Below, one piece after another: positions 4,621 to 35,362 of a stretch of 41,680 bases of DNA (position 1 is its first letter; every line of letters starts with the position of its first letter). Origin of the DNA: a virus. Where the stretch lies: the IMG/VR virus record IMGVR_UViG_3300020462_000014, positions 1-41,680 of that record. One strand, 5' to 3'. Below the pieces are notes generated by a model that saw only the letters and a program-made list of their open reading frames with translations, searched no databases and was not told the DNA's origin. The position numbers were made by a program, and so were the translations under genes.

Positions 4621-6327
4621 TTAGTTTCCTGATTGATTACCGATGGCTGCAAGGCTAGCCATAATGCTAGCAAAAGACTTCCTGTATTGTGCATCTGCCT
4701 GACTTCCTGTAATTACATCTCCATAAGTATCTCTCATAAAGTCGTCAAAACTTGTTGCCATTGCTCCTGCAACATCTATTTCTGCTTCTAATTCTGTTGG
4801 TGTAAAGTCTCCTACTCTACCTTGACCAGCAAGGTTTCTTCTTCTTCTTGCATCTTCTAATTGAATTTCCATATTTTTTTGTCTTATATCAAAGTTTTGT
4901 TTTTGTAATGAATAATCTTGTTTAGACCAAAAATCAAAAAACTCTTGTAGTTCTCCATCTGATGCTGGTCTACCTAATCCATCTTGTATTGCTGAGCTAA
5001 TATAACTACTTGCATTTGTAAAATTAGGTTTTGTATAATTAAATATATTTTGATACGCATTGTCACTACCATAGTTTGGTTCAAAAGCACCTGTACCATA
5101 ACCATAATCTGCTAAGGAATCTTTAAAAAACTCTTTTAAAAATACATTCATATTACCTGCAGTGCTACCTGGAGCTAGAAGTATGCTATACAAATCTTCC
5201 ATACTCATACCATCACCATTTAAATTAAATCTTGACATTGCAGATTCTATAGCACTTATTGTGCCACCTGGATTGTTATCTAATACTCCATAAACAAATG
5301 TAAATGGTTGCAAGAATCCAGACTCTACTAATAAAAGTTGTGTATCCATAATGTCTTCTGGTGATGCATTAGCAAACAATGATGTAGCTAAACCATTTTG
5401 ATATAAAGGCATTGTTCCTTGATTAGTGTCTTCACTATACACATCTAAATCTAATTCTCCTATACCATAGTAATCTTGCTCACCAAAATAAGTTCTTGCT
5501 CTTGCTTGTTCTGCTTCTTCTGGTGTCATTTCTAAACCAGGTCCATATAAAGTTGCGTCTGTAAAAGCAAAACCTTCATTAATAAATTTATCTACATAAT
5601 CTGCACCATATTCGTTATCTATAATTGCATCTAAACCTGATACATATTCTTCAGTAGTTATTTCATCATTGTCAAGTTTATTTTTTAATTCATCTGCAGA
5701 TGCTAAATCTATATTTTTTGCGGCTGCTGTTATGTAATCCATATCTAATGATTGTTTATTTATATATGCTTTATAAGCTAAGTCTGCTTGAGGAGCATAA
5801 CCTGCAGATATTGCTGTACCTACAACATCAGCACTAATGTGTTGCAATTCAGGTGGTAATCTATCAGCTTCATGTAAGTTTATTAATACATCAGTACCTT
5901 CTGAAATAATTTCTACAGCTTCTTTCATTGCAGGAGTATCGTAAGAAAATGATTGATATATAAAATTTACATAATCTTTTGTATTTTGAGGCAATGATTC
6001 ATATGATTGACCTGTCATTGCTTCAACCCACAAATGATATTCAGCTAAACTTACTTCTGGCATTTCTAAATCTGCTTGTTCTAATTGTCCACTTTCTCTA
6101 GAACTAAAGTAATTTAGTACTTCACTACCAAATTGTCGTACAAATTGTTCTCTACCTAAAAAGAAAATACTTAAAAAGTCATTAAATAATTCAGTGTTAA
6201 ATGTAGTAGGTCTATTTTTTTCTGGAAGACTAAACTCATATCCACCCCAGCTATATTCTTTTTTTTCATTTACACCAAGAATAGTATCTAATACAGATTG
6301 TTCTTCTTCTGTATATTGTTCTGACAT
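4621..6327 (-). CDS. Structural protein, unknown (568 aa)
   Basis: No family recognised. The 568-residue product is acidic, soluble and largely helical, with a basic coiled-coil-like segment near residues 470-495 (QNFDIRQKNMEIQLEDARRR). It starts at the ATG overlapping the stop of the 2165-residue gene and is followed two bases later by the lysozyme gene, so these three form one translational unit. In podoviruses such a trio (very large protein, medium protein, muralytic enzyme) often makes the internal core that is ejected into the cell. That role is inferred from context only. Confidence 0.6.
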   Translation of the reverse strand: MSEQYTEEEQSVLDTILGVNEKKEYSWGGYEFSLPEKNRPTTFNTELFNDFLSIFFLGREQFVRQFGSEVLNYFSSRESGQLEQADLEMPEVSLAEYHLWVEAMTGQSYESLPQNTKDYVNFIYQSFSYDTPAMKEAVEIISEGTDVLINLHEADRLPPELQHISADVVGTAISAGYAPQADLAYKAYINKQSLDMDYITAAAKNIDLASADELKNKLDNDEITTEEYVSGLDAIIDNEYGADYVDKFINEGFAFTDATLYGPGLEMTPEEAEQARARTYFGEQDYYGIGELDLDVYSEDTNQGTMPLYQNGLATSLFANASPEDIMDTQLLLVESGFLQPFTFVYGVLDNNPGGTISAIESAMSRFNLNGDGMSMEDLYSILLAPGSTAGNMNVFLKEFFKDSLADYGYGTGAFEPNYGSDNAYQNIFNYTKPNFTNASSYISSAIQDGLGRPASDGELQEFFDFWSKQDYSLQKQNFDIRQKNMEIQLEDARRRRNLAGQGRVGDFTPTELEAEIDVAGAMATSFDDFMRDTYGDVITGSQADAQYRKSFASIMASLAAIGNQSGN

Positions 6328-9300
6328 TAAATATCTCCTCCATAATAACTTACTTCTTCTTCTATCTCTACTCTAAACACATCAAAGTACATAAAGTAAA
6401 AGTCTGGATTTTCTAGCATAATTTTGTTAGCAACACCTCTTAAATAACTTCTGTACTGAGAGGCTTCCGCTCTACTTAAAGTAGCGTTTAATCCATACTC
6501 TGATTTTATTACATTCATAACTCTTTGTCTTGCTGTTAAGTATTTAATAATTCCTTTCATAGCTGATAATTCTTTTAATTTTTTAGTAGAACCATCAGGC
6601 ATATTGATTGTTGTATCCCCTTCTCTTTGTATCATCTCTGTTAATTGGTCTATTTTTGCTTGAGATGTTAAAGAACGTGGTGCTGTTGAAGTATCTCCAT
6701 AGCCTTGAAATTGTTGTTGCAATTGTAATCTTACTAAATATAGTTGTTCTACTCTTTTTTGATAAGGCATGTTTGCATACATTGGTCCATCCATTATGAC
6801 TCTTCTAGCATGTTCATATGCTAAACTTCCTTGTGCTTGTCTTACAGCTTGTTTATATTCTTCTGGTGATAAATCTACTCTATCACCATCAGCAAAAGCT
6901 TTATTCCAAGCTTGCCAATTAAACTCGTCTAATGGACTATCAGGATACATGTAATATGCAACATCAGGATATTGTTTAAATATATCTATATTTTCTTGTT
7001 TAAAGAAACCACCTTCATCTGTAAAAGAAGTTTTTCTTATAGACTTAGATTTAGAAGTTAACAAAGAGGTAGGTTCAAAACCAAATACTTTTATAAATTG
7101 TGCTATAGCTACAACTCTATCTCCATTAGCTTTTGCTAACATTTGATAATAAGCATCTGATAATAAAGTTTGTGCAAAGTATTTACCTTCTGGGTCTCCT
7201 TCTGCAGTTTCTCTAGGGTCTAAATAAGCTCTACCTCCTGGTCCTATTTCATAATCATATTGTAAAACAGCACCTGTAGGAGCTAAGAATTGTATAAATG
7301 CTCTATGTAATAAACTTTGTGTTGCTAATCTTTTAGCTTTTTCTAATGATGCAACTTCTTGTTCTGGTGTTGAATCATCATATGTCTGTGTCATAAACAT
7401 AGCTCTCTGTATTTCTTTTACTTGATTTGCATAAGCTCTTTGAAACTCTACATCCATAGAGTCTCCTGCTGTTATTGCTTTTCTAAGCCAACTAGGTATA
7501 GCTTGCTTTGCATAAAACAATGGGTTAGCCATCTGTGGTACACCTTCATCTGGTCTACCATATGGAAAAAATACTTTGTCTACATCAGGAGTAGAAGGTA
7601 ACATAGCTGCTGCAGGTATCTGTGCCAATGGTCCAAGACCAGGTATAATATCTCCAGCAACCATATTTAAACCGCTTGCATATCCTCTTAGTTTCGTATT
7701 TATACTAGGTATTTCTGTTGTTTCTTTTCCTGTTATAGGGTTTGTACCTAAAGCATCTGGATTAGGATTTTGTAAACTTTTGTCTATGTTAAATATATTT
7801 TCAAACCAATTCATGTTGTACATTTCTTCACCTGATTGTGGGTCAGTAGTAAAGAATCCTTCATCTTCATACTCTCCAAATATGCTTGGTTTACGCATAG
7901 CTTCTACACTTCTTTGTACTTTTCTACCAAATAACATCTTTTGTCCTCTTAATAATCTTGACCATGTACCAGCTATTTCAAGATAAACTTCTGCGAAAGG
8001 CATTGCTAATCTAACCATGTCTGTAATAACATGTCGTTTATTTAAATCGTAAAGCAAATCTTTTGTTTCTGTTAATGCATATGCTTTTGCTAACTCATCA
8101 ACTTGTCTTAAATCATCTACACCAAGTAGTTTAGAAGCATTAGCTTGTCCCATATTTTCTAAACTCTTAAGATATTTTCTTGCTCTGCTACCAGGGTTTG
8201 ACCTACCCATAACTTTTTTAGCTTGTGCAAATACTTGTGTTCTTGCAGCGTCATCTAAATTTGCATACATGTTTTCCATAAAGTTCCAATAAAATTGTCT
8301 AAACGCTGGAGAACGTGATAAGTCATTTGTTGTTGAACCCATCAAACCTGAAAACATTGTTTCTAATAATTTGTCATACTTACTTGCTACATCTCCTGAC
8401 ATGTCAGTTCTAGATGCTTTAAATTTATGTGTGTCAGTCCATACACCACTCTTTTTAGTTCTTAACCAATTGGTATATTTTTTATGTTGTGACTCTGACA
8501 TTTCTCTATTAAATTTAAGTTGTACATCTTCACCTTTGTCAGTAATTTTTACAAATTGATTATCTGCTTTTGCAATGTGACCTATTAGTTCTTCATCTCC
8601 AGCTTGTACGATTGTGTATTTAATAACATTGTTTTCACTTTTAATAGTAGGTTTTATAGAATTTTCGTCCCATACATTACCAACAAACTTACCATCTGGT
8701 GTGTATTCTACAGCTCTATATCTACCACCTGTCTTGTCATGTATCCTTGCAACAATAGAATCTATATATGAATCTGAGTGTACTTTACTACTAGATAATA
8801 ATGATTTAGTATATCTACCTGTTTCATCAGAGTTTGATACAAATGATTTTCTCCATTGGCTTAATTCACCATCCCAGAATGATTGTTTAACTTCATCTAA
8901 ACTTCTATTAAATTGTTCTCTACCTCCTACAGGATTAAATTCAATAGAAGCTATTCGTGTAGCTAAAGGGTCATCTGCAAGTTGTAGTAACTCCTTAGTA
9001 CCAGCTCCATAAAATCTTTTGTTATCTTTTGTAACCTGTGTAAATCCTCTTGCTCTCTTAGGGTCAAAGCCAATAGTCATACCTCTATGAGATTGTGTTA
9101 ACGCTCTTTGATGTTCCATAGCTAGTTCTAATGATGCATCAAATATATCTGTACCACCTCTTCCTAAATTTAAAGTGTCAGCTAAATAATCATCTCTTAA
9201 TTTTTGTCTTTGTCCTTTTAACAAACCTTGTCTTTGTGAAGGTTTCCTACCTAGTACCCATGCAAACGCAGAAAATGGATGTGCAAACATATTGTCTAAG

Positions 9301-12300
9301 TCTGCTGCCCACATACGTAATTGTTCTTCACCAACAACTCTTAATACCCAAGCAGGTCGTAAAAGAATAGATGGCTTCCATAATCTTTGCATATAGCCAT
9401 CACCAATCATAGTAAGCATTCCTTCTGTTAAATTAACAATTTCTGAATCATCTGAAGTTTTCTTTACATTTACTCTTGCTTTTTTAACAACAAGCTTAAT
9501 TGTTTCCATTGCAGTCTTATCTTCTTTTAAAGCTAATTCAGCTAAGTTTGCTACTGGTTTAGCTAATAATCTTTCATAATCTTCTGTAGAAATATTTTTA
9601 GCTCTACCGGAAAGTCTTAACATTAAATCTCTCATAGGTCTAAATACTCTAATAAACATTCTTGCATCTGGCATAGGTATAAATCCTTGGTCAAAGTATT
9701 CAGATATCAAATGTGCTGTAGCTTTTGGAACTTTATTTATTTGTACTCTTTTAGATAAATCTTTGCTATTAGCTATTTCATCTGATATATCTTCTACAAC
9801 TGTTCTTAATTCTTGTGCTGTGTAAAGTGTTTCATCACCAGGTTTAATTCTTTCTATTGCATTATCAATAGCACCTTTAACATTACCTAATGTAATGTTT
9901 GGTTGGAATACTTTTTGTACAAACATAATATCTTCCATAGCTGTTTTAAGTAACGCTTCTTCTGCTTTTGTAAAATCACTTGGTCCTGAAACATTTAATG
10001 ACCTGACATTATTAAATTCAGCAAACCTTTGTATTTCTTCAGCTTGTTTTTTTGTAAGACCTTTAGACAAATCAACTACAGCATAAGGTTTATGTCCCTG
10101 GTATACACCTGGCTTTAAACCTTTAATACCTTTCTCAATAACATGTGTACCTTTTTCTAAATAATTTGCTACTTGTTTAAGTCCTTGTCCACCTTTGCTA
10201 GCACCCATAAATATAATTGTCATGTCTGCATCATCTAAGTTGTATCTAGAAACTCTACTTATTTCTTGTTTGTCTAGTTTCATAGTTGCAAAATCTTGGT
10301 CCCAAAATTTTTGGTCGTATATTTTCTTTTTGTCTATTTCAGATAGACCTTTAAACTCTGGAACTACATCACTTACTTCATTAGTAAGAGTCTGTATTCT
10401 TTTGTCAATTCTTGTTCTGTCTGCAAGAGATGAACTTAAATCATCTTTATAAGGTTTTACTGCTTCATCTAATTGTTCTTGTATTGCTGCTCTAGCATCT
10501 TTAGTTGTAGCTTCAGGAAATTCTTTTTTATATGCAGATATATTATCTGTGTTTGCTTTGTACTGTTTACCTATTTCGTCAATCTGTGTTCTTAAAGATT
10601 GTATTTTTTCTGTTACATTTCTTGTTTTAGTTTCTAGACCATTTAGTTCTTGTACATTTCTTTCTGCTTTCTGCCTTACTTTTCTTGGTAACTTAGATAC
10701 TTCTACGCCTGTTCTTTCTAATGCTTCTTGTCTAGCTACAGATAAGTTTTTTAACTCAGCAGCTTTATCTGCATCTGACATATCAGATAAACCTAGTTCT
10801 TTCATTCTTTGTGAAACATCAGTACCAGACTTACCTCTAAAACCATAAGGAACTCGACCACCAGTTTGTATACCTATTTCATCTGCAATGTTTAAAGCAG
10901 CTTGTTCTACACCTTCGTAGTATCCACCAGTAATATATTCAACTAACGCTCTATCTTCTGGAGTAGTTGTGTTACTAGCTATATCTTTTATATCTTGTAA
11001 AATAAAATCTAATTCATCTGTATCAACTTTGTTTGATTTTTTATATTTAGATAAAACTCTTGACACAATATTTAAAGCTTCATCATCAGTTAATTGTTCT
11101 GAAAAGTAAGTATCAAAAGGTAAATCTTCTATTTTACTGCCTGGAAAGTATTCGAGTTCACCTAGTGCATTTGTGAAATACATTCTTGTTTCATCAATAC
11201 TTGCCATCCATTTTCTAATTCCTTGTACTAACTCTTTAGGCAAGTTAATGTTTTCAAATTTTTCACCTATATGTTTTTGTACGTCATTCCAAATATCTAA
11301 AATATCATTCATGTTTCTTACAGACTGAGCTTTACTAACGGTATCTGCACCTTTTTGTGTAAGTGCTAAATCTGCAAGCCTATCTAAAGCAGGTTCTGCA
11401 ATAGCATCATCAACTCTTGCATACCTCATCCAATCTTGTAAATCAAAAAAAGATTGATTAAAATCGTTAACATACAACTTTGGTGCAGGAAATGTATCAA
11501 ACATTCTACCTAAAGCAGTGTTATTTAAATTATGTCTAATAGCACCAGATAAACCTACAGCTTCACCTAGTTCTCCACCAACCATACGACCTAATTTAGA
11601 TGACACCTGTCCTCTAAATATTAAAGAGTTAGGATTTAATTTCTTTGTTATTTCTCCAGCTTCTATAGCAGCTACTACTAAATCTTCTGTTTCTCTAGTT
11701 GTCTTAGCGTTTTTAATATTTCTATGTAATACAGCGTCTGCACCACTACTACCTCTTTTACCAAGTAATCTTTTAATAGTTCCATAGTCATCAGCTTTAG
11801 TTAACTGATTTATAATTTTTCTTCCCCCTGCTGTTCTTGTTACATACTCAATTGCAGAAGGTACATGTACAGTTTTTCTTACAGCTTTATCAATAATACC
11901 AGCACCTTTTAAAGCATCTCCTTGAGATAATGACCTAGTAACTTTTCCTGCTTTTGATAAATAACCACCAACTAATATTGTTGGGTCAGCAAGTAAAGTA
12001 AAAGCACCGTCAACAATACCTGTTGCTACATTGTATGACCTAGAACCTGGTTCTAAAACATTTGCAAACATAGCTGCTGCAGGTGTAAGTTTTACAGTAC
12101 CGTGTTTAGACTTAATTGTTAAACCTTCATCTCTAGCTTGTTCTGAATTAGTTATATCTTCTCCGTAATAACTTTGTACTATTTTTTTAACTTCTTCTGG
12201 GTCAGCACCTCTACCAACCATTTCTTTATATATATCTGTATTTTCTGCCATAGTAGAGTTTCCAAAAAAACCTTCGCCTAAATTTACTTTTTCTCCAGCT

Positions 12301-12824
12301 AAAGATTTCTTTATAGCTTCTCTACCTACAGACGGTCCTAATATCTGTCTTGTTTTCTGCCATTCTTTTTGTGCTTTTTTATCAAATAACAATGATGAAG
12401 CTGCTGTAACAAATCCTTGACCATCATTATGTTTTCTATCATTTAAATATTTTTGTGTAGCTAACATTGGTTTTTTTACCAACTCATCTTGAAAAGAGTC
12501 AAAGGCTACAAATGCAGTTCTAACTGCTCCTTTACCTGCATTTTTAGTTCTATCCCACCAAGTCTTTTCAACATCTAACCATCTTTCTACTAAAGGTGCT
12601 AACTCTGGTGATTCAGTAGTTAAACCCATAAGAGCAGAACCAATTAATATATCTTTTGGCAAATAAAAATTTTCAGTAATTAAATTTTTTAAATTATTTG
12701 CTATACCAGGATTTGCTTCTAAAGCATCTGTAATTTGTTGAGCTTGCACAAATCTTTCTTTTTGTGCTTCTTCTTCTAAATTTTCTGTATAAGGAGGTTG
12801 CCACCACCATCTAATTTCTGCCAT
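6327..12824 (-). CDS. Giant virion protein, probable ejection protein, with split YspA-like domain
   Basis: At 2165 residues this is 15 percent of the window. It is mostly helical, with hydrophobic stretches near residues 255-290, around 1160 and near 1710-1760 (GLNMVAGDIIPGLGPLAQI) that could contact membrane. Residues about 631-663 (ITGGYYEGVEQAAL, then GIQTGGRVPYGFR) and about 857-950 (NLDDADMTIIF, GG, KPYAVVDLS, VRSLNVSGPSD) together match the glycine-rich start and LNVAGP end of the putative molybdenum carrier/cpYpsA group of the SLOG superfamily, interrupted by a coiled coil (about 680-820). Position after portal and size suggest an internal protein injected with DNA. It is too far from tail genes to look like an ordinary tape measure, though that remains possible. 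Confidence 0.7.
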   Translation of the reverse strand: MAEIRWWWQPPYTENLEEEAQKERFVQAQQITDALEANPGIANNLKNLITENFYLPKDILIGSALMGLTTESPELAPLVERWLDVEKTWWDRTKNAGKGAVRTAFVAFDSFQDELVKKPMLATQKYLNDRKHNDGQGFVTAASSLLFDKKAQKEWQKTRQILGPSVGREAIKKSLAGEKVNLGEGFFGNSTMAENTDIYKEMVGRGADPEEVKKIVQSYYGEDITNSEQARDEGLTIKSKHGTVKLTPAAAMFANVLEPGSRSYNVATGIVDGAFTLLADPTILVGGYLSKAGKVTRSLSQGDALKGAGIIDKAVRKTVHVPSAIEYVTRTAGGRKIINQLTKADDYGTIKRLLGKRGSSGADAVLHRNIKNAKTTRETEDLVVAAIEAGEITKKLNPNSLIFRGQVSSKLGRMVGGELGEAVGLSGAIRHNLNNTALGRMFDTFPAPKLYVNDFNQSFFDLQDWMRYARVDDAIAEPALDRLADLALTQKGADTVSKAQSVRNMNDILDIWNDVQKHIGEKFENINLPKELVQGIRKWMASIDETRMYFTNALGELEYFPGSKIEDLPFDTYFSEQLTDDEALNIVSRVLSKYKKSNKVDTDELDFILQDIKDIASNTTTPEDRALVEYITGGYYEGVEQAALNIADEIGIQTGGRVPYGFRGKSGTDVSQRMKELGLSDMSDADKAAELKNLSVARQEALERTGVEVSKLPRKVRQKAERNVQELNGLETKTRNVTEKIQSLRTQIDEIGKQYKANTDNISAYKKEFPEATTKDARAAIQEQLDEAVKPYKDDLSSSLADRTRIDKRIQTLTNEVSDVVPEFKGLSEIDKKKIYDQKFWDQDFATMKLDKQEISRVSRYNLDDADMTIIFMGASKGGQGLKQVANYLEKGTHVIEKGIKGLKPGVYQGHKPYAVVDLSKGLTKKQAEEIQRFAEFNNVRSLNVSGPSDFTKAEEALLKTAMEDIMFVQKVFQPNITLGNVKGAIDNAIERIKPGDETLYTAQELRTVVEDISDEIANSKDLSKRVQINKVPKATAHLISEYFDQGFIPMPDARMFIRVFRPMRDLMLRLSGRAKNISTEDYERLLAKPVANLAELALKEDKTAMETIKLVVKKARVNVKKTSDDSEIVNLTEGMLTMIGDGYMQRLWKPSILLRPAWVLRVVGEEQLRMWAADLDNMFAHPFSAFAWVLGRKPSQRQGLLKGQRQKLRDDYLADTLNLGRGGTDIFDASLELAMEHQRALTQSHRGMTIGFDPKRARGFTQVTKDNKRFYGAGTKELLQLADDPLATRIASIEFNPVGGREQFNRSLDEVKQSFWDGELSQWRKSFVSNSDETGRYTKSLLSSSKVHSDSYIDSIVARIHDKTGGRYRAVEYTPDGKFVGNVWDENSIKPTIKSENNVIKYTIVQAGDEELIGHIAKADNQFVKITDKGEDVQLKFNREMSESQHKKYTNWLRTKKSGVWTDTHKFKASRTDMSGDVASKYDKLLETMFSGLMGSTTNDLSRSPAFRQFYWNFMENMYANLDDAARTQVFAQAKKVMGRSNPGSRARKYLKSLENMGQANASKLLGVDDLRQVDELAKAYALTETKDLLYDLNKRHVITDMVRLAMPFAEVYLEIAGTWSRLLRGQKMLFGRKVQRSVEAMRKPSIFGEYEDEGFFTTDPQSGEEMYNMNWFENIFNIDKSLQNPNPDALGTNPITGKETTEIPSINTKLRGYASGLNMVAGDIIPGLGPLAQIPAAAMLPSTPDVDKVFFPYGRPDEGVPQMANPLFYAKQAIPSWLRKAITAGDSMDVEFQRAYANQVKEIQRAMFMTQTYDDSTPEQEVASLEKAKRLATQSLLHRAFIQFLAPTGAVLQYDYEIGPGGRAYLDPRETAEGDPEGKYFAQTLLSDAYYQMLAKANGDRVVAIAQFIKVFGFEPTSLLTSKSKSIRKTSFTDEGGFFKQENIDIFKQYPDVAYYMYPDSPLDEFNWQAWNKAFADGDRVDLSPEEYKQAVRQAQGSLAYEHARRVIMDGPMYANMPYQKRVEQLYLVRLQLQQQFQGYGDTSTAPRSLTSQAKIDQLTEMIQREGDTTINMPDGSTKKLKELSAMKGIIKYLTARQRVMNVIKSEYGLNATLSRAEASQYRSYLRGVANKIMLENPDFYFMYFDVFRVEIEEEVSYYGGDI

Positions 12825-20298: not shown

Positions 20299-20621
20299 AG
20301 AATATAATTATGTATAAGTATTACGCATAATGATTATATATAGTAATGTGAACGGCTCTCAGTCCTGTTAATTAAACGCATAGTCAATAGATTTCTAGTT
20401 GGCATAGTCTATATAGAAAAAAAACTTTGAGATTTTTTTTTGTCTATATATTTAAATACGAAATTATGAACGCATAGTGGTTACCGCATAGGGAGTGTCA
20501 AGTCATTCTAGTATATAGCAGCCTTATGATTAGCGAGAGATGTTAGCTTGAAGCCACGACCAAAATCACAAGTCAATATATACATAATGTATGTATTGCA
20601 TATTTATACAAAGGGGAAACA
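20138..20621. other. AT-rich gene-free stretch, possible origin or control region
   Basis: No open frame of note. It contains A and T runs (around 20180-20200 and 20420-20450), three TATGCATA palindromes, a near-identical pair GTGAACGACTCTCAG (20242-20256) and GTGAACGGCTCTCAG (20348-20362), and a repeated GTCTATATA. Repeats plus easily melted DNA between early transcription units would fit a replication origin, but this is only an inference. The ribosome site AAAGGGG for the next gene is at the right edge. Confidence 0.3.
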
Positions 20622-21080
20622 ATGGTGTACATACAGGGACACAATATAGACAAGGCAAGTTACTTGCCCAAAGGTACTTATCAAGAAGGCTCAACCATAG
20701 ACAGTATGCGTGAGCCTACTGTAAGACCTGACATACCACTTCCCTCTGGTGCATGTATCTTTTGTCGTAAGAATACATCATCACAACGAGCTTGTTACTC
20801 GTGTAGGGAAGTTGACTTTAAGATAAACAGCAAAGAACATGCTGAATACCTAGCTAGTATTCACGATGTTATTAACACAAAGCAAGAGTCCATAAGGCAG
20901 GGACACTATGCACCTGTTACGAGTGCTGATTACGAGGAAAAACTAGCTCTGCTAGGCGACACTAAGTACGACCACGATATAAAACAAGGTTGTTGCTCTA
21001 GCCATAGCGACCTATTCAAGCCATACTGCAAAGGTTGTGGGTTACAACTACCTATGACTAAGGTATGCGACTACTGTTAG
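20622..21080 (+). CDS. Zinc-ribbon protein (152 aa)
   Basis: Two pairs of Cys-x2-Cys lie near residues 45-61 (CIFCRK, CYSC) and a further set lies near the C-terminus (YCKGCGLQ, CDYC), with extra Cys at QGCCSSH. This makes at least two zinc sites joined by a helical middle. The N-terminal 40 residues are Pro-rich and probably flexible. The likely role is nucleic-acid or protein binding, perhaps as a regulator of host transcription. The start is ATG 20622 behind AAAGGGG. No family name can be given. Confidence 0.65.
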   Translation: MVYIQGHNIDKASYLPKGTYQEGSTIDSMREPTVRPDIPLPSGACIFCRKNTSSQRACYSCREVDFKINSKEHAEYLASIHDVINTKQESIRQGHYAPVTSADYEEKLALLGDTKYDHDIKQGCCSSHSDLFKPYCKGCGLQLPMTKVCDYC

Positions 21081-21106
21081 TAGTTTTTATATAAGAACTA
21101 AAGAGT

Positions 21107-21627
21107 GGCTTGTCCATGTAGGCGTATGTATTACACATACCATATTTCACATGCCTACGCGTAGTTAATCTACGCCAAGCCCTGCTATCTACTAAGTAAT
21201 AAACAAGCTGGACACTTGCGTAAAGGTTAGTAGGTAGCACGATATCTATACGAGAGTTGATGTTCTCTCCTGTTGCAAAAGCAACCAATAAAGTTATTCA
21301 ACTAGTTGTAGGTATCGTGCTATCTATCTATTGCACAGATTGATACTCTCTGTGTACAAGTCGTGCAAACGATATAGGTAGGTAGCTCGCTACTTATTAC
21401 AGCATTATGAAGGGGCTTCGTGGATTGTAGTCCTAGTTTGAGTGTTGTAATAGTGGAAGTAACTACTTTGTTAGTTGCTCGTTACTTATAAGTAGGAATA
21501 GGTTATTCAGCCCTGTTTCAACCTATGACCGAAATGTAGGTAGCGAGAGGTGTATTTACAAAGGGGGTTATCCCCTAATCCCTATACCTGCCGTATACGT
21601 ATGTAATGTACACCTCTCGTTATCTAC
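21107..21627 (+). ncRNA. Candidate large ornate RNA (about 520 nt) built of abutting helical domains
   Basis: Domains in order: (1) 21107-21181, three-way junction GGCTTG/CAAGCC with GTAGGC/GCCTAC and GCGTAG/CTACGC, the last helices touching. (2) 21184-21238, twelve-pair stem. (3) 21239-21318, ACGATA/TATCGT enclosing GAGAG/CTCTC and GTTGC/GCAAC; it can extend to 15 pairs by invading domains 2 and 4. (4) 21319-21386, thirteen-pair stem, then a seven-pair hairpin and GTCGT-GCAA-ACGAT with a GNRA loop. (5) 21390-21456, fourteen pairs, one bulge, two inner hairpins. (6) 21457-21487. (7) 21498-21526. (8) 21536-21627, nineteen pairs enclosing two hairpins. All mismatches in the long stems are G-U on the plus strand. 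GTAGGTAGC recurs at 21230, 21378 and 21536. Base pairing was done by eye; no known RNA family was identified. Confidence 0.5.
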
Positions 21628-21640
21628 AAAAGGAAATCAA

Positions 21641-21781
21641 ATGATATGCGACAACTGTGGGCAGAGTGAGATGTCTGTTGTAGGACAACTTGCAAATGTC
21701 AAATCAACTGTACTCAATATGGTTAAGTGTTACACCTGTGGGTATGGAAGTGTAAGAAAAGCTAACACGAAAAGGAGATAA
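21641..21781 (+). CDS. Zinc-ribbon mini-protein (46 aa)
   Basis: ATG 21641 opens a 46-residue frame with CDNCGQ near the start and CYTCGYG near the end, a classical four-cysteine zinc ribbon, and a basic tail. It starts 14 bases after the last helix of the structured RNA, with AAAAGGA as ribosome site, so RNA folding could control it. Its stop is followed one base later by the next ATG, sharing an AAAGGAGATAAT ribosome site. Confidence 0.65.
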   Translation: MICDNCGQSEMSVVGQLANVKSTVLNMVKCYTCGYGSVRKANTKRR

Positions 21782-21782
21782 T

Positions 21783-22046
21783 ATGCTACCTACTAAACGG
21801 CATAAAATTAAGGGCAAGAAACTTCTTAATTTAGCAAAACAAAATCCTAATACTGAATATGTAGTGGATATGCGAATAGACAATGCTAGGAATTGGGCAG
21901 AGCTTCGCAAAGATGTAGTTCAGTACAATCTATTAAGTCCTATGGGGTTTCGTTTTCGTGCTACATATAAACAAGGACAAGAAGGCTTCGTGTACTTGCT
22001 CGTTAGATATAACGATAACGGCAAGTCCCATGAGGAAGAACAATGA
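21783..22046 (+). CDS. Unknown small protein (87 aa)
   Basis: An 87-residue basic product with no recognised family. A basic first segment (MLPTKRHKIKGKKLLNLAKQN) is followed by an alternating beta-rich region ending in an acidic tail (KSHEEEQ). It has a good ribosome site (AAAGGAGAT) and is the second gene of the MoxR-VWA operon. Confidence 0.6.
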   Translation: MLPTKRHKIKGKKLLNLAKQNPNTEYVVDMRIDNARNWAELRKDVVQYNLLSPMGFRFRATYKQGQEGFVYLLVRYNDNGKSHEEEQ

Positions 22047-22064
22047 AAATAAAAGGAGGGCTAT

Positions 22065-22649
22065 ATGAATAGTGATGACTTTGATGATTTTGAACAATCA
22101 TTTAAAGAAATGTTTGAAAGAGCAGAATCACTAGGTTTTAAACCATTAAAACCGAAAGATGACTTTATCCCAAGAGTGTTTGGTCTTAGGGCGTTGCACT
22201 TAAACGGAGATAGAGATGACGGAATCATAGAAAGCGATATGTATTTCGCACCTAAAAATAATCCTGTTGAGATGATGATGGACTACTTCATGACTTTAGT
22301 AGATGAAAATTCTATTAACTTCATAAGGAAATTCGTTATGTTGACAGCAGAAATATTTGTTGACGCTACGAAAGATGGTGTAGTAGATACTTCTCATTGC
22401 AAAACACCAGAGGACTATGCACAGGTTTATGCAAGTCTAATGGTAGAGGGTGCTGAAATGCTAACCAAAGGTACTACATGGACAAAGTTTGCTAGAAGTG
22501 TAGAACTTGATTTACCACAAGTGGTAATGATAGGACACCCTGATGCGTTAGCCAATATGATACCGACTTCAAATGGCGACTTAATAAAGAAAGTAAGTAA
22601 CGCTGATGTTGAGAGCTTCATTAAAGAAGTTCTTACAGAGGAGGAATAA
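22065..22649 (+). CDS. Unknown acidic protein of the MoxR-VWA operon (194 aa)
   Basis: A 194-residue, strongly acidic, mostly helical protein (start MNSDDFDDFEQSFKEMFERA). No motif recognised. A good ribosome site (AAAGGAGGG) precedes it, and its stop overlaps the next ATG (TAATG). It is the largest unknown gene upstream of the AAA+ ATPase, so it could be an adaptor or substrate of that chaperone pair; this is inference from linkage only. Confidence 0.6.
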   Translation: MNSDDFDDFEQSFKEMFERAESLGFKPLKPKDDFIPRVFGLRALHLNGDRDDGIIESDMYFAPKNNPVEMMMDYFMTLVDENSINFIRKFVMLTAEIFVDATKDGVVDTSHCKTPEDYAQVYASLMVEGAEMLTKGTTWTKFARSVELDLPQVVMIGHPDALANMIPTSNGDLIKKVSNADVESFIKEVLTEEE

Positions 22650-22891
22650 TGGAAGAAGTTAAATCGCATGAGGTTATCTCATACCTTAACTGTCGTAAGT
22701 GTGTTGAGGATTGGGAATTGACCGACAAAAGCGAATCCCCTCGTGATTACGCAAGATTAGAAATTGCTATCAATATTGACAATCAATTACTAATAGGTTG
22801 TGTTAGACACAACGAACATGTCGGTGCTTTTACTTTGCATGAGCAAGTAAACATGCAAGCTATGAGTAGAGGTTGTGATTGTTGTGAGTAA
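22649..22891 (+). CDS. Small Cys-rich protein (80 aa)
   Basis: The product has CRKC near residues 16-19, CVRH near 51-54 and GCDCCE at the very end, so at least one zinc site is likely. It is coupled to the 194-aa gene by a TAATG overlap, and preceded by GAGGAGG. It may be an adaptor in the operon. No family recognised. Confidence 0.6.
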   Translation: MEEVKSHEVISYLNCRKCVEDWELTDKSESPRDYARLEIAINIDNQLLIGCVRHNEHVGAFTLHEQVNMQAMSRGCDCCE

Positions 22892-25975: not shown

Positions 25976-26032
25976 AGCTATCTAAATCTAGCGATAGATT
26001 GAGTACCTAGCAATAGATACCAGAGATAGCTT
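25975..26032 (+). ncRNA. Compact three-way junction in the 3' end of the MoxR-VWA mRNA
   Basis: AAGCTATCT/AGATAGCTT (nine pairs) encloses AATCTA-GCGA-TAGATT and GTACCTA-GCAA-TAGATAC. Both inner hairpins carry GNRA tetraloops on the plus strand; the second has one C-A mismatch, which would be G-U on the minus strand. The first base overlaps the VWA stop, and the element ends five bases before the terminator stem. It resembles the junctions at 21107-21627 in style. It may stabilise the mRNA end or be cut out as a small RNA. Confidence 0.45.
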
Positions 26033-26036
26033 ATAA

Positions 26037-26085
26037 ATACCCCCCTCGTGTGTGGTTGTTCACACATAGGGGGGTATTTTTTTTT
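26037..26085 (+). terminator. Strong intrinsic terminator after the MoxR-VWA operon
   Basis: ATACCCCCCT/AGGGGGGTAT and TGTGTG/CACACA stack into one long stem with a small internal loop and a six-base end loop, followed by nine T. Confidence 0.92.
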
Positions 26086-26139
26086 GTTTTTTTTTCTATG
26101 CATATGCATATACATATAAAAAATTTCTTGATTTAATGC

Positions 26140-29882: not shown

Positions 29883-30101
29883 TTATCTGCTTTTTGCTTT
29901 CTTTGGTTCATTGCCTTTGTCCTTTCTAAACCCTATGGTTAGCAACCATATAACTAAAGTAATTAAAGTCGCAAGACCTGTAACCTGTTGTGCTGAACCA
30001 GTCAATGTAAGAGTAGCTATAACTAAACCTACTAAAGTCCAACTAAGATTTAAAGTTTCTTTAATTGCCTCTATAATCCATGACCATAGTTTTTTTAACA
30101 T
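29883..30101 (-). CDS. Small membrane protein of the lysis cassette (72 aa)
   Basis: An amphipathic start (MLKKLWSWIIEAIKETLNL) is followed by two membrane segments (TLVGLVIATLTLTG and LATLITLVIWLLTIGF) and a strongly basic tail. The layout suits a second holin or an antiholin. Its ATG shares a base with the stop of the acidic protein gene (TAATG). Confidence 0.65.
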   Translation of the reverse strand: MLKKLWSWIIEAIKETLNLSWTLVGLVIATLTLTGSAQQVTGLATLITLVIWLLTIGFRKDKGNEPKKAKSR

Positions 30102-32233
30102 TATTGTTTCCTCATTAAAAATGCTGCCATAGAGGCTATTCTAGTCAAAATAACTGGGACTACAACTTCTTGTGCTTTTTCCTTCTGGTCTTTAGTCATG
30201 TCGTCTCCAATACTACCTATTGTTATTTCTGTAAAGTCTACATCTACAAAAGTTTCTATTGGATTTTCTAAGAATGTTTCAAACTGTACCTCTGTAACAA
30301 CATCAGCTAATGTATAGTTCTCTACATCTGCATTCTCTACAGCTCTTTCAACGTATTCTTCTACAGCTTCAGCTACAACTTCATCTTCTTGTATTGCTTC
30401 TGCAATGATTTCAACGTCTTCAGTTTGTACCTGTAATACTTCAGCGACAACTTCAACTTGTTCTTCAGTAAGTATTTCAATATCATTTATAGCTTCCTCC
30501 ACTACAGCTTGTACAACTTCTTGTATTTCTTCTGACGCTTGTTCTAAGTTTTGTACACCAATGTCGTTTACTTCTTCTATGACCTCGATAACTTCTTCGG
30601 TTTCAAGTTCTTGTACAAACTCTTGTATTGCTTCTTCTTTAGATTCTTCATACTCTTCTAACTCCTCCTCAGTATATTCTTCTAACTCTTCTTCAGTAAC
30701 TGTTTCAATTTCAATAACAATAACTTCTTCTATGTCTGCAACTTCTTCAGCTACTTCTTCTTCAGTTAATTCTATTACTTCTTCGTCTTTAAATATGTCA
30801 GTTATAGAATCTGTTATTTCTGTTTCCTCAACATCTTCCTGTATTGACTCATCCAAAATCTCCTCTGCTTGAACTTCATCTTTTCTATCGGTGTCATCTC
30901 TATGTATCTCTTCGACCAACTCATCTTCTTCTACTTCCTCAAACTCAGTATCCCAATCATCTAAGTCTATTTCTAATTCTTTTATATCTTCAATAATTAT
31001 AATCTCTATTTCTTCAAACTCTTCTAAAAATTCTTCTACTTCTATGTATGTTTCTACAAACTCTTCGAACTCTTCATCATCTTCGAATACCATAATCTCA
31101 ATAAATTCTTCATCTTCTTGAAGCTCAAGAGCCTTAGCATCTCTCTCCATTTCTTTTTCAAATTCAAGTATCTCTTCTTCAGTAAGCTCAACAAATTCTT
31201 CATCTTCATACTCATCTTCCAAATCATCATATACAAAATCATCATCATAAAACTCGTCTCCGATTTCTCCCAGGTCTTCCTCAATAACTTCGATGTCATA
31301 TAATTCTAAATCTCCACGTTCAACTTGTTCATCGGTTAATTCTACACCATATAAATCTAAATTTCTTTGACGCTCATTATCACGCTCAACAGTACCATCT
31401 TCTATTTCATATTCTTCATACTCAGATTCTGTACCATCATCCATGACTACAACAAATACTTCAGGTTCAGGAGGAGGTGGTGGTATATATATCTCTGGCT
31501 CTGGTTCAGGTTCAGGAGGTGGAGGTAATGTTGTTGTAGTAGTTGTTGGCTGTATGTATTTAAAGGATATATCATCTACTAAAGTCCAATCATTTAGTGT
31601 CAAAGTAAACTTATCTATAAAAGTATCTAAAGTTGTTCTTATGTTATAAACAATAACTTCATACATTGTTTGAGCTGTTACAAATTGTTGAGCATCAATA
31701 TTATTTGTTTGAGTTGTTTCATCAGTATGTGTATAAGTTACTTCAGCTTGATTATTCAAAGCTCCAATAGTAAATCCAACTTCATAGATTTCTATTTCAA
31801 GTTCTTCTTCATCAACAGTTGTTGTTTCTGGTAAATCAAATTCATAAGACCCAGAATCTCCATGATGTTGTTGGTACTCAATGTTAATACAATAGTCGGT
31901 GCAACCATATTGACCAGACCATGTATTGTTATAATCAATATTATTTTCTACTTCGTTACCTTGTATATCTAATTCATCTTGAGGAATAACCATATCAGTT
32001 GCCTGTTCATAAGTTTCAGGAACAGTTGTTGTTGTAGTTGTTGTAGTATCTGTAGATTCTTCTTCTACAGGAGGTGGTCCATCAAATGTTTCTACCTCTT
32101 CTACTTCTCCCTCTGGGATAGTTGTTGTTGTTGTTGTCGTAGTTGTATTATCTTGTTCGTTAGCTAACGCTGATAGCGGTAGCAAACTTAAAGATACTAC
32201 TAACCACCATTGCAGCAGCCGTGTCCACAGCAT
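30101..32233 (-). CDS. Very acidic secreted protein with Thr-rich linkers (710 aa)
   Basis: A signal peptide is clear (MLWTRLLQWWLVVSLSLLPL then SALA). Two runs of eight or nine Thr ending in Ile/Val-Pro follow, then a beta-rich domain (about residues 105-225), a Pro-rich linker, and some 350 residues dominated by Glu, Asp, Val and Ile in short repeats (for example EEVIELTEEEVAEEV). The end is a hydrophobic helix (VVVPVILTRIASMAAFLMRKQ) that could span the membrane. Thr runs of this type are common in exported actinobacterial proteins. It sits inside the lysis cassette, which is unexpected. It might be a cell-surface or spanin-like element, or a decoy. AGGAGG lies nine bases before ATG 32233. 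Function unknown. Confidence 0.7.
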   Translation of the reverse strand: MLWTRLLQWWLVVSLSLLPLSALANEQDNTTTTTTTTTIPEGEVEEVETFDGPPPVEEESTDTTTTTTTTVPETYEQATDMVIPQDELDIQGNEVENNIDYNNTWSGQYGCTDYCINIEYQQHHGDSGSYEFDLPETTTVDEEELEIEIYEVGFTIGALNNQAEVTYTHTDETTQTNNIDAQQFVTAQTMYEVIVYNIRTTLDTFIDKFTLTLNDWTLVDDISFKYIQPTTTTTTLPPPPEPEPEPEIYIPPPPPEPEVFVVVMDDGTESEYEEYEIEDGTVERDNERQRNLDLYGVELTDEQVERGDLELYDIEVIEEDLGEIGDEFYDDDFVYDDLEDEYEDEEFVELTEEEILEFEKEMERDAKALELQEDEEFIEIMVFEDDEEFEEFVETYIEVEEFLEEFEEIEIIIIEDIKELEIDLDDWDTEFEEVEEDELVEEIHRDDTDRKDEVQAEEILDESIQEDVEETEITDSITDIFKDEEVIELTEEEVAEEVADIEEVIVIEIETVTEEELEEYTEEELEEYEESKEEAIQEFVQELETEEVIEVIEEVNDIGVQNLEQASEEIQEVVQAVVEEAINDIEILTEEQVEVVAEVLQVQTEDVEIIAEAIQEDEVVAEAVEEYVERAVENADVENYTLADVVTEVQFETFLENPIETFVDVDFTEITIGSIGDDMTKDQKEKAQEVVVPVILTRIASMAAFLMRKQ

Positions 32234-32561: not shown

Positions 32562-33251
32562 TTATAGCATACGCTTCGGTCGTTTCCTTTTTATACTGTC
32601 AAATATCGTACGAATATTTCTATGAAAATTTATACTAGCAGTTGAGTAAGACATATATTTTAGAATATCCTCTGTTGGTTCTATTTCTTTTAAGTCTATA
32701 GGTTTATTAAAAAATATTGTGTTACATGGATTACCTTTTACTAAATTAATTGTTGCAGGTTTATTTATATCTTCTTGTACCCATGCAAGATTGATTGGTC
32801 TTAACCAAGCATAAGGATAAAAAGAACCTATAACAGCAGAACAATTAGTTTTGTCTACATTGTCTAATGGGTTCATTAAAGACATTTCTAAATCTTTATC
32901 ATCAGTTACAAATATCATACTTATTGTTTGTTGCAGAACAGCTCTTCCATCATCAGTAGCTCTAACAGATAACATATCACCCATCAATGTGTGCATATCA
33001 TCAGATGTACTATGAACTTTTTCATCTAACATATAGTTGTAATATGGTCCTTCTTTGTTTATACCAAATTCTATTTGTACACTTAATATTCCAGGCAAAG
33101 TAAAAAGTCTATTGTTTAATCCACCAATAGAGGGACAACCGTAAACATTATTATTTATTTTTTTTAACTCTTGTTGTAATGAAGGATGCATAAAATCGTT
33201 AGGTATATAAAAATATCCTGCTTTAGTTTTTTTTAATTTAGGATACACCAT
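32562..33251 (-). CDS. Unknown protein (229 aa)
   Basis: No family recognised. The 229-residue product starts MVYPKLKKTKAGYFYIPNDF, contains a beta-rich centre (TLPGILSVQIEFG, QQTISMIFVTDD) and ends very basic (SIKRKRPKRML). It follows three paralogous genes but does not show their KGYS or PKG motifs, so I treat it as unrelated. Its ATG shares a base with the preceding stop (TAATG). Confidence 0.6.
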   Translation of the reverse strand: MVYPKLKKTKAGYFYIPNDFMHPSLQQELKKINNNVYGCPSIGGLNNRLFTLPGILSVQIEFGINKEGPYYNYMLDEKVHSTSDDMHTLMGDMLSVRATDDGRAVLQQTISMIFVTDDKDLEMSLMNPLDNVDKTNCSAVIGSFYPYAWLRPINLAWVQEDINKPATINLVKGNPCNTIFFNKPIDLKEIEPTEDILKYMSYSTASINFHRNIRTIFDSIKRKRPKRML

Positions 33252-33970
33252 TACTTAAATCTTTTCTTAGACCAACTTGTATCACGATAATGATTTTGCA
33301 TAGTAGCATTAAAACCATTTTCAGCTAAAACATCTAACTCACCATCTTGTAGATACTCTGTCTCCATAGACCAGGACTCTCTTTGAAATGGTATTATCTG
33401 TGCTAAAGGTGTTCCTTTAGTTATAATGCCTGTAAAATCTTCTTTTAACCACATAGGAAAATGAAAGTTTAATACTTCTTTATCTGTATCTACTATGGCA
33501 GGTATCATTCTAAGAGGTGTATCATGCCAACCAAAGGGCTGTGTAATTAAACAACTGTAGCCTTTAGGTGTTTTAATTATTGTATTCCAAATGTAATTAA
33601 CAACTTGACTATTGTATCCAGTAGGTGGTTCTATTATATTTGTACTTGTGTTGTGTATTGTAAATAACAGCTCATCACTATTCCACTGCAAATCAAATAC
33701 ATTGTCTTTGTTGTGTTGAACAATCATATCTTTGCGTAGCTCTACAATATAACCTGCTTTCATAGTATCAATAAAAGGTAAACACTTTTTAAATGTCATG
33801 TTCTTTCCTTCATCTGTCATCATAAGTTTTTTATCAGGTGTTCCATCACTCATGTAAACAGGTGACATAGAATACCAAGATGGCTTGTATAGATAAGCAG
33901 GTTTAGGTGCAGGTTGTATTTTAGAATATCGTTTATTTATAGCTACAAATTTAATCTTTTTGTTTAGCAT
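33251..33970 (-). CDS. Paralogous unknown protein, copy 3 (239 aa)
   Basis: The shared plan of the three tandem genes is visible: an N-terminal PAP/K motif with an aromatic Trp-Tyr, KKCLPFIDTMKAGYIV, a Trp-containing beta strand, KTPKGYSCLI, a metal-or-ligand-like middle with IPAIVDTD, and TKGTPLAQIIPFQRESW. It is the most divergent copy. I chose ATG 33970, with AGGAAAC just before it, over the longer frame from 34015, which runs through the end of the previous gene. The family is known to me only as unknown proteins near tail genes of marine phages. Confidence 0.65.
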   Translation of the reverse strand: MLNKKIKFVAINKRYSKIQPAPKPAYLYKPSWYSMSPVYMSDGTPDKKLMMTDEGKNMTFKKCLPFIDTMKAGYIVELRKDMIVQHNKDNVFDLQWNSDELLFTIHNTSTNIIEPPTGYNSQVVNYIWNTIIKTPKGYSCLITQPFGWHDTPLRMIPAIVDTDKEVLNFHFPMWLKEDFTGIITKGTPLAQIIPFQRESWSMETEYLQDGELDVLAENGFNATMQNHYRDTSWSKKRFK

Positions 33971-34673
33971 TACGTTTCCTAAACAGTTTCCTATATCCAT
34001 TTTTAAATGAACCAAGGTTATTTACATAACCCCTAGCGGAAAGTTCTTCGTCCCATTCTTGTAAAACTAAATTATATTCTTCTCTTTTATAAGGAACTAT
34101 ATAACATAATGGTGTGCCTTGTGCAATGAATACATCTTTTACACCATTCTTTAACATGATTTGTGGATTAATTAAATGATATTGGTCAGTATGAATTATC
34201 CCATATGCAACTTCCCAATCAGGATTGTTGTGCCATAACATTGGTATTTGCATTATTGAGTATCCATCAGGAGTAATGCATTCCCAGGTGTTATCTAATT
34301 TAAAAACAAAATCAAAATTAGAATCGCCATAACTTAAAAACTGGTCACGACCATGTATTACTATTTCTATTCCAGGTATTCCTGTTTCAAATCTCCAGTC
34401 ACCATTATCTTTGTTATACATTAATTGTAAATCACATGGTGCAGGTATTACATATCCAGTATTAAAAACATCTACAAAAGATGGGCATAACTTTGCTGTT
34501 CTTGTTTCACTGTTAGGACCAGTATGTTTGTAAGGGTCTAATGGATTATGTTCTATATCTGCAGCAGCAGGTGTATTTTTCCATATCTCAGGTATAAAAT
34601 TTTTAGCAGGTTGTACAGTTACTTCTGAATTAAGTAATCCTTTTATAGGTGTTTGAAACTTTACATCTATCAT
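33951..34673 (-). CDS. Paralogous unknown protein, copy 2 (240 aa)
   Basis: The motifs line up with the copy upstream: QPAKNFIPEIWKN, RTAKLCPSFVDVFNTGYVIPAPCD, PDGYSIMQIPML, NPDWEVAYGIIHTD, AQGTPLCYIVPYKREEY and SFKNGYRK. There is no signal peptide or membrane segment. Its ATG overlaps the preceding stop (ATGA). Conserved Cys, Asp and His/Tyr positions suggest a binding or enzymatic fold, but none is recognised. Confidence 0.7.
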   Translation of the reverse strand: MIDVKFQTPIKGLLNSEVTVQPAKNFIPEIWKNTPAAADIEHNPLDPYKHTGPNSETRTAKLCPSFVDVFNTGYVIPAPCDLQLMYNKDNGDWRFETGIPGIEIVIHGRDQFLSYGDSNFDFVFKLDNTWECITPDGYSIMQIPMLWHNNPDWEVAYGIIHTDQYHLINPQIMLKNGVKDVFIAQGTPLCYIVPYKREEYNLVLQEWDEELSARGYVNNLGSFKNGYRKLFRKRNAKQKD

Positions 34674-35362
34674 TTGTTAAATCTCCTGTAACCATTTTTA
34701 AATTTAGATAAGGCTCTATGCATACTGCCTTCTATCTGTGGTTTATACTTATCATAGTTATTATCTATAACTAATTCATAATCTTCTCTTTTAAATGGAA
34801 CATAATAACATAAAGGTTCACCTGCTTTAATAAGTATTTCTTTCTTGTTACTTGTATAGCAAATTTGTAAATTAACTTCATTTACTACATCTGCTTTTAG
34901 AACACCATAAGCTACATGCCAATCAGGATTGTATTCATAAAACAGTGGTAATTGTCTTACACTATAACCTTTAGGAACAATTATTCTGTAAGGATAATTT
35001 AATTTAAATATTTGTTTTATTACAGGGTTAGGTAAAAAATTATTAAGCTGTCCTTGTCCATGCATTGATATATCAAAGGCTTCATTAGATGTTTTCCAAG
35101 CCCAATCATTTACACCATCACCATCAACACTTAACCATATATCACAAGGTGCAGGTAAAACAAACCCTTCTGTAAATATATCTAAGAAGTTAGGACATAA
35201 TTTTGCTGTTCTAAAGTTAGGTATTTCTGTGTAATTTGTTTCATACTCTACATCTGAAGGCATATTTTTATACCATTCAGGGATATAATTTTTGGCAGGT
35301 TGTGGTTGAAATTCTTTTATGTCTCTGTGTCCAACGACATCAGAAGTAAATATTATTTTCAT
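34670..35362 (-). CDS. Paralogous unknown protein, copy 1 (230 aa)
   Basis: First of three tandem paralogues: QPAKNYIPEWYKN, RTAKLCPNFLDIFTEGFVLP, PKGYSVRQLPLF, NPDWHVAYGVLKAD, KAGEPLCYYVPFKREDY and KFKNGYRR. It follows the MAHFAK protein and glycine-rich fibre genes. Tandem copies of one family beside host-contact genes may act on lipid, sugar or protein modification of the cell surface or tail; that is speculation. Confidence 0.7.
   Translation of the reverse strand: MKIIFTSDVVGHRDIKEFQPQPAKNYIPEWYKNMPSDVEYETNYTEIPNFRTAKLCPNFLDIFTEGFVLPAPCDIWLSVDGDGVNDWAWKTSNEAFDISMHGQGQLNNFLPNPVIKQIFKLNYPYRIIVPKGYSVRQLPLFYEYNPDWHVAYGVLKADVVNEVNLQICYTSNKKEILIKAGEPLCYYVPFKREDYELVIDNNYDKYKPQIEGSMHRALSKFKNGYRRFNK

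What the first reader, a model, noticed from the sequence alone, without database searches (positions are those of the whole stretch)
21107..21627. A 520-base stretch tiled with abutting RNA-like helices upstream of the MoxR-VWA operon
Seen: eight helical domains follow each other almost without spare bases, at least four are branched, one carries a GCAA tetraloop, and stems reach 12, 13, 14 and 19 pairs. In the long stems every imperfect pair is G-U when read on the plus strand; a minus-strand transcript would have A-C clashes there. Known: large ornate RNAs such as GOLLD and ROOL occur in phages and are of similar scale, but I cannot match this one to either. Inference: a phage-encoded large non-coding RNA, possibly undescribed.
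Basis: partly seen in the sequence, partly recalled or inferred. Interest (0 to 1): 0.82.

Follow-up and report, generated by a model that had tools for sequence, protein, structure and literature searches.

The report
Shuffled RNA hairpin cassettes in phages
The stretch is one member of an apparently undescribed family of phage RNA arrays, built from hairpins that share standard stems while their tips are swapped between phages, which looks like a changeable kit of structured RNAs whose job is still unknown.

Summary
Window 21104-21626 (+ strand) folds into eight abutting hairpin domains (z = -8.9; minus strand only -4.85), and no Rfam family matches. Comparative evidence shows it is not a single fixed RNA but one member of a large modular family. 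Arrays alternate hairpins closed by GCUAUCUA/UAGGUAGC (X slot) with hairpins whose commonest arms are UUGUAGCACA/UGUGUUACAA (Y slot). The arms covary, and G.U wobbles stand at fixed places, so selection acts on the plus-strand RNA. The tips form about 93 Y and 73 X families. Identical tips sit in different phages, and the same tip can sit on an X or a Y stem. Near-identical phages differ by one cleanly inserted or replaced module. A recurrent CCCUGU module (window 21481-21544) has an internal helix with compensatory changes at all five pairs. Most arrays lie in one phage lineage, early operon, sense strand, between varied small genes; one lies in an unrelated siphovirus. Best guess for function: a trans-acting set of interchangeable RNA domains that bind or decoy host factors. 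Structure and shuffling are shown; function is inferred.

The parts
21104..21183 (+). D1, branched 5' domain (GGCUU..AAGCC closing stem, two inner hairpins); found only in the window's near relatives
21184..21238 (+). D2, X-slot hairpin: R GCUAUCUA 21184-21191, R' UAGGUAGC 21231-21238
21239..21318 (+). D3, Y-slot hairpin with arms ACGAUAUCUAUA / UGUAGGUAUCGU and a UGUUCU tip that recurs on other stems in the L014 and L071 groups
21319..21386 (+). D4, X-slot branched hairpin: R 21319-21326, R' 21379-21386, GCAA tetraloop
21390..21455 (+). D5, Y-slot hairpin (CUACUUAUUACAGC..GUUGUAAUAGUGG)
21458..21479 (+). D6, short hairpin
21481..21544 (+). D7, X-slot hairpin carrying the CCCUGU module: R GUUACUUA 21481-21488, AGUAGGAA 21491-21498, CCCUGU 21511-21516, GACCGAA 21527-21533, R' 21537-21544
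   Evidence: covariance model hit 65.2 bits, E 2.2e-13 (the window copy is in the training set)
21545..21618 (+). D8, Y-slot long branched hairpin with arms GAGAGGUGUA / UACACCUCUC
21619..21626 (+). Final R arm GUUAUCUA, just before the ribosome-binding site of the next gene
20622..21080 (+). 152-aa cysteine-rich (zinc-ribbon-like) ORF upstream of the array
   Evidence: no Pfam or PHROG match
21641..21781 (+). 46-aa CxxC..CxxC ORF directly downstream; similar ORFs follow arrays in the L014, L071 and L075 groups

Best explanation
Shown: 21104-21626 is a tandem array of RNA hairpins on the plus strand, one member of a phage-borne family. Hairpins stand on standardised, wobble-marked stems (R/R' for X slots; UUGUAGCACA/UGUGUUACAA or covarying substitutes for Y slots). 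Their tips are independent structured modules that recombine between phages and between stem types. Inferred: the array is transcribed with the early operon; each hairpin folds on its own and may be released by a double-strand-specific host RNase. The tips would act in trans, binding or decoying host proteins or RNAs, and modules would be exchanged as hosts and their defences change, much as phages exchange small accessory genes. I put the structural and modular description at about 0.95 and the trans-acting host-directed role at about 0.4.
For: Folding z -8.93 on +. Y arms chosen only by their flanks pair at 85% against 58.5 +/- 2% for shuffled partners. X-slot R/R' arms covary, 0 of 1000 shuffles as high. 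G.U 51 against A.C 4 in the less common arms. CCCUGU module: five of five inner pairs with compensatory changes, invariant loop motifs, covariation score 0.426 against 0.214 +/- 0.015, found in 54 of 100 further loci. About 93 Y and 73 X tip families; same tip on X and Y stems; clean module insertion or swap between near-identical phages. Array is sense to MoxR in 44 of 45 cases and downstream genes belong to 21 families in 29 cases, which argues against gene-specific control. Array also in an unrelated siphovirus record. T-arm-like hairpins in 9 Y units against 0.15 expected.
Against: No expression, processing or binding data exist. Many arrays end within 35 bases of a ribosome-binding site, which would also suit a cis role. 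Many tips are seen in only one phage, so their function cannot be judged. The host is unknown.
Confidence: 0.45

Rival explanations
1. Cis-acting operon element: the hairpins act in the mRNA that carries them, as RNase III-type processing or stabilising sites between genes (as known for T7 early mRNA) or as RNA that alters the transcribing polymerase (as known for phage HK022 put). The tips would be largely incidental.
For: Arrays lie between genes of the early operon, in sense, and often end just before a ribosome-binding site. Long imperfect stems suit RNase III (general knowledge).
Against: Processing sites do not need conserved apical loops or exchange of tips. Number of hairpins varies from one to about ten at one locus. 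Downstream genes are very varied.
Confidence: 0.27
2. Selfish hairpin cassettes: the modules spread by recombination at their repeated stems (or by an unknown recombinase) and give the phage no benefit.
For: Clean insertions, a 4-base TAGC overlap at one insertion, reuse of the same ends, spread to an unrelated phage.
Against: Conserved loop motifs and compensatory changes inside the CCCUGU tip, strict sense orientation, and survival in small 36-42 kb genomes imply function of the RNA. No transposase was found to go with them (recurrent proteins).
Confidence: 0.13
3. RNA scaffold: the array assembles, alone or with the phage's small cysteine-rich proteins, into a particle comparable to the GOLLD and ROOL cages.
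For: Similar length and phage origin, conserved loops; an R' arm can pair with the R arm on either side, which would allow exchange between molecules (inference).
Against: The number and kind of hairpins vary too much for a defined particle. The complement of the CCCUGU loop is rare in array loci (4 AACAGGGC against 56 GCCCTGTT). Covariation favours X-slot pairing, not the alternative pairing.
Confidence: 0.1

Closest known systems
GOLLD and ROOL large phage RNAs (PMC12286853)
   Same: Phage-encoded structured RNAs of 500-900 nt, function unknown, optional stems, sometimes with tRNA-related elements nearby
   Different: Those have a conserved global fold with an Rfam model; this one has no Rfam match and no fixed fold, only a fixed grammar of stems with exchangeable tips
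TIGR stem-loop arrays with Tas proteins (PMC12045711)
   Same: Tandem stem-loops with variable inner sequence, found in phages and metagenomes
   Different: No Nop-domain protein in 23 array-bearing records; [quoted passage not shown] tips are 20-200 nt folds shared between phages
Integron gene cassettes
   Same: Interchangeable units bounded by imperfect inverted repeats, shuffled between genomes (works like)
   Different: Units carry no genes, the repeats show G.U-specific RNA conservation, no integrase was seen, and the ends do not read as attC core sites (by eye)
ssNA-helicase RNA, RF03070
   Same: Shares a short string GUAGCNUGUAGCA with the R'-Y junction
   Different: Best score 19.7 bits against a cut-off of 41.5, with no shared structure shown
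OLE RNA (PMC9723947, title and abstract only)
   Same: Large structured RNA with a kink turn; the CCCUGU module's internal loop has GA facing GA, which could form a kink-turn-like bend (inference)
   Different: No Rfam match; partner proteins of OLE were not searched for

Membership tests
GOLLD / ROOL / OLE / HEARO and every other Rfam 15 family | Match to the covariance model | tested here: not met
   No match at gathering in the window or 13 array loci; none up to E 10 in 20900-21800
GOLLD / ROOL | Ordered homo-oligomeric RNA particle | not testable with these tools
   Needs biochemistry or cryo-EM
TIGR-Tas | Nop-domain Tas protein near the array | tested here: not met
   PF01798 absent from 23 records at E <= 1; control genomes rang
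[quoted passage not shown]
   Not seen by eye in the units; no formal search made
ssNA-helicase RNA RF03070 | Score at or above 41.5 bits | tested here: not met
   Best 19.7 bits in 19 records
tRNA / tmRNA | Recognised by ARAGORN or the tRNA model | tested here: not met
   None in the window or 9 loci; 13.9 bits against 29 for the T-arm-like tip
Integron cassettes | attC sites and an integron integrase | not tested
   Only inspected by eye; no integrase among recurrent proteins
RNase III processing sites of phage early mRNA | Cleavage in the long stems | not testable with these tools
   Needs RNA ends from infected cells

The most novel reading that the evidence does not exclude
Phages carry a cassette system made of RNA rather than genes: a bank of small structured RNA domains on standard stems, exchanged between phages, each disabling or mimicking a different host component (for example as RNA-based counter-defence, including tips that mimic part of a tRNA).
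Probability: 0.3. Interest if true: 0.95.

Novelty: categorically new. Interest (0 to 1): 0.85.

Why it matters
If the arrays act in trans, phages keep a swappable library of structured RNAs comparable to their libraries of small accessory proteins. That would open a hidden class of host-directed RNA, and each of the many tip families would be a ready candidate for binding assays. Even as cis elements, a grammar of standard stems with exchangeable tips is a natural example of modular RNA evolution, with sets of natural variants to test. The family lies unnoticed in common metagenomic phages and has no Rfam model.

Tried and rejected
BLASTN against named phages found nothing for 20400-22700 or for a typical cassette. 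The exact Y end in 84,980 bacterial and archaeal species genomes gave three hits, none with a matching hairpin, taken as chance. An alternative pairing register, R' with the following R around Y, was considered because it gives longer helices; covariation supports X-slot pairing instead, though lone Y units without an upstream R can only use the other register. Hammerhead ribozyme was considered because of CUGAUGA..GAAA in L007; rejected since there is no room for stem II and the window copy breaks the motif. TIGR guide arrays were rejected for lack of a Nop protein. A partner for the CCCUGU loop was sought and not found. The first pairing search, which counted both strands (354 units), was biased by preselecting pairing and was replaced. 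The commonest Y end is conserved by construction because it was the search pattern; the 5' arms, the tips and the other arms were not selected that way. Structured spots elsewhere in the window are mostly weaker; the strongest is the terminator after the MoxR-VWA operon. RNAalifold on six near relatives had too little variation to be strong evidence by itself.

Full report
What was checked. The stretch 21107-21627 was read, folded on both strands, compared with Rfam and then with relatives. The plus strand folds at z = -8.93 and the minus strand at -4.85. Piecewise folding gives eight abutting domains, D1 21104-21183 to D8 ending at 21618, with the last R arm at 21619-21626 and a start codon at 21641. 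No Rfam family matches.

Relatives. The window is a 41,680-base IMG/VR virus record of 34.6% G+C. A protein search with its MoxR-like ATPase brought 61 loci. Six of them (L002, L007-L011) carry recognisably homologous RNA at the same place, one cut short by the contig end. Four more, with MoxR about 50% identical, carry a 600-800 nt structured region at the same place whose sequence is mostly different. Comparison shows hairpins gained and lost as units. Pattern searches for parts of the stems then brought in many further phages. The commonest Y end, TGTGTTACAAGCTATYTA, alone hit the limit of 120 stretches.

Grammar. Arrays read R-X-R'-Y-R-X-R'-Y-R, where R is GCTATCTA, R' is TAGGTAGC and Y is most often bounded by TTGTAGCACA and TGTGTTACAA. 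In 150 distinct Y units chosen only by their R' and R flanks, the 45 with other arms pair in 85% of positions against 58.5 +/- 2% when partners are shuffled. Examples are GAGAGGTGTA/TACACCTCTC (the window's D8 arms), TCGTACTACA/TGTAGTACGA and TTGTAGGATA/TATCTTACAA. G.U pairs recur at fixed helix positions; in the less common arms G.U outnumbers A.C 51 to 4. In the DNA these are mismatches, so selection is on the plus-strand RNA and not on a DNA palindrome. Among variable arms, R pairs with the next R' more often than chance (82% against 62.5 +/- 3%, 0 of 1000), while R' with the next R does not.

Tips. The interiors fall into about 93 Y and 73 X families. Several families occur on both stem types, for instance a 40-base stretch identical in Y of L097 and L129 and in X of L117. 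Phages 95-96% identical around the site (L067, L002) differ by an 82-nt inserted hairpin with a TAGC overlap, and L009 and L011 (94-98% identical) differ by a replaced Y tip. The commonest tip, called here the CCCUGU module, was aligned in 30 distinct copies including the window's. AGUA, GA, CCCUGU and GAA are invariant, and the inner helix has compensatory changes at all five pairs (covariation score 0.426 against 0.214 +/- 0.015, 46 double-change cells against 12.5 +/- 3.2). The copies were gathered with a pattern that fixed those conserved letters but not the helix. A covariance model finds the module in 54 of 100 further loci and in none of the distant MoxR-bearing loci included as controls. 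T-arm-like hairpins occur in 9 Y units of 5 families where shuffles give 0.15, but they are not tRNA genes.

Where it lives. Of 26 array-bearing records, 23 have a terminase 43-94% identical to the window's, and most loci share a metallophosphoesterase, a Rad52-like protein, MoxR and the protein after it. The terminase and portal are about 25% identical to those of Streptomyces phages, which hints at, but does not show, actinobacterial hosts. Arrays are sense to the early operon and often end just before a ribosome-binding site. Genes just downstream belong to 21 families in 29 cases. At least one record, G028, is a different phage: it lacks the lineage's terminase and metallophosphoesterase, its large proteins read like HK97-type siphovirus proteins (my reading of the sequences), and its array lies well inside the contig. 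Bacterial genomes show no arrays with the commonest end.

What it probably does. The facts demand selection on the folded plus-strand RNA and on particular loops, with frequent exchange of tips. That pattern is most like accessory genes that answer to the host, so a trans-acting set of RNA domains is preferred (about 0.4). Cis processing or polymerase-acting sites come next, then selfish cassettes, then a scaffold. None of these roles was tested.

Known systems. GOLLD, ROOL and OLE are the nearest in size and origin but the Rfam test is not met and they are fixed folds. TIGR stem-loop arrays fail for lack of a Nop protein. RF03070 shares a short string only. Full-text searches found no description of such arrays, but preprints and most subscription journals are not held, so novelty is stated within that limit.

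Noticed in passing
window 25976-26090: An isolated R..R'-like hairpin (GCTATCTA..GATAGC) followed by a very strong terminator-like hairpin and T run at the end of the MoxR-VWA operon.
   Followed up: partly
window 20622-21080 and 21641-21781: Two small cysteine-rich (zinc-ribbon-like) ORFs flank the array; the 46-aa one also follows arrays in other groups and could be an RNA-binding partner.
   Followed up: partly
L177 1698-1826, L113 near 3349, L091 near 9336: Some Y tips hold a perfect tRNA T-arm-like hairpin (such as GTAGG-TTCAAAT-CCTAC), far above shuffle expectation, within larger tRNA-like but unrecognised folds.
   Followed up: partly
L079 about 3190-3600 (record G028): An array in an unrelated siphovirus follows a near-consensus promoter (TTGACA, 17-base spacing, TAATAT), suggesting it is transcribed from its own promoter there.
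   Followed up: no
window 6327-12824 (-): A 2165-aa ORF has a weak Pfam match to a circularly permuted YpsA SLOG domain.
   Followed up: no
window 32562-35362 (-): Four consecutive ORFs of 229-254 aa look like tandem paralogues of one family.
   Followed up: no
window 30101-32233 (-): A 710-aa ORF carries long threonine runs and very acidic repeats after a possible signal peptide.
   Followed up: no
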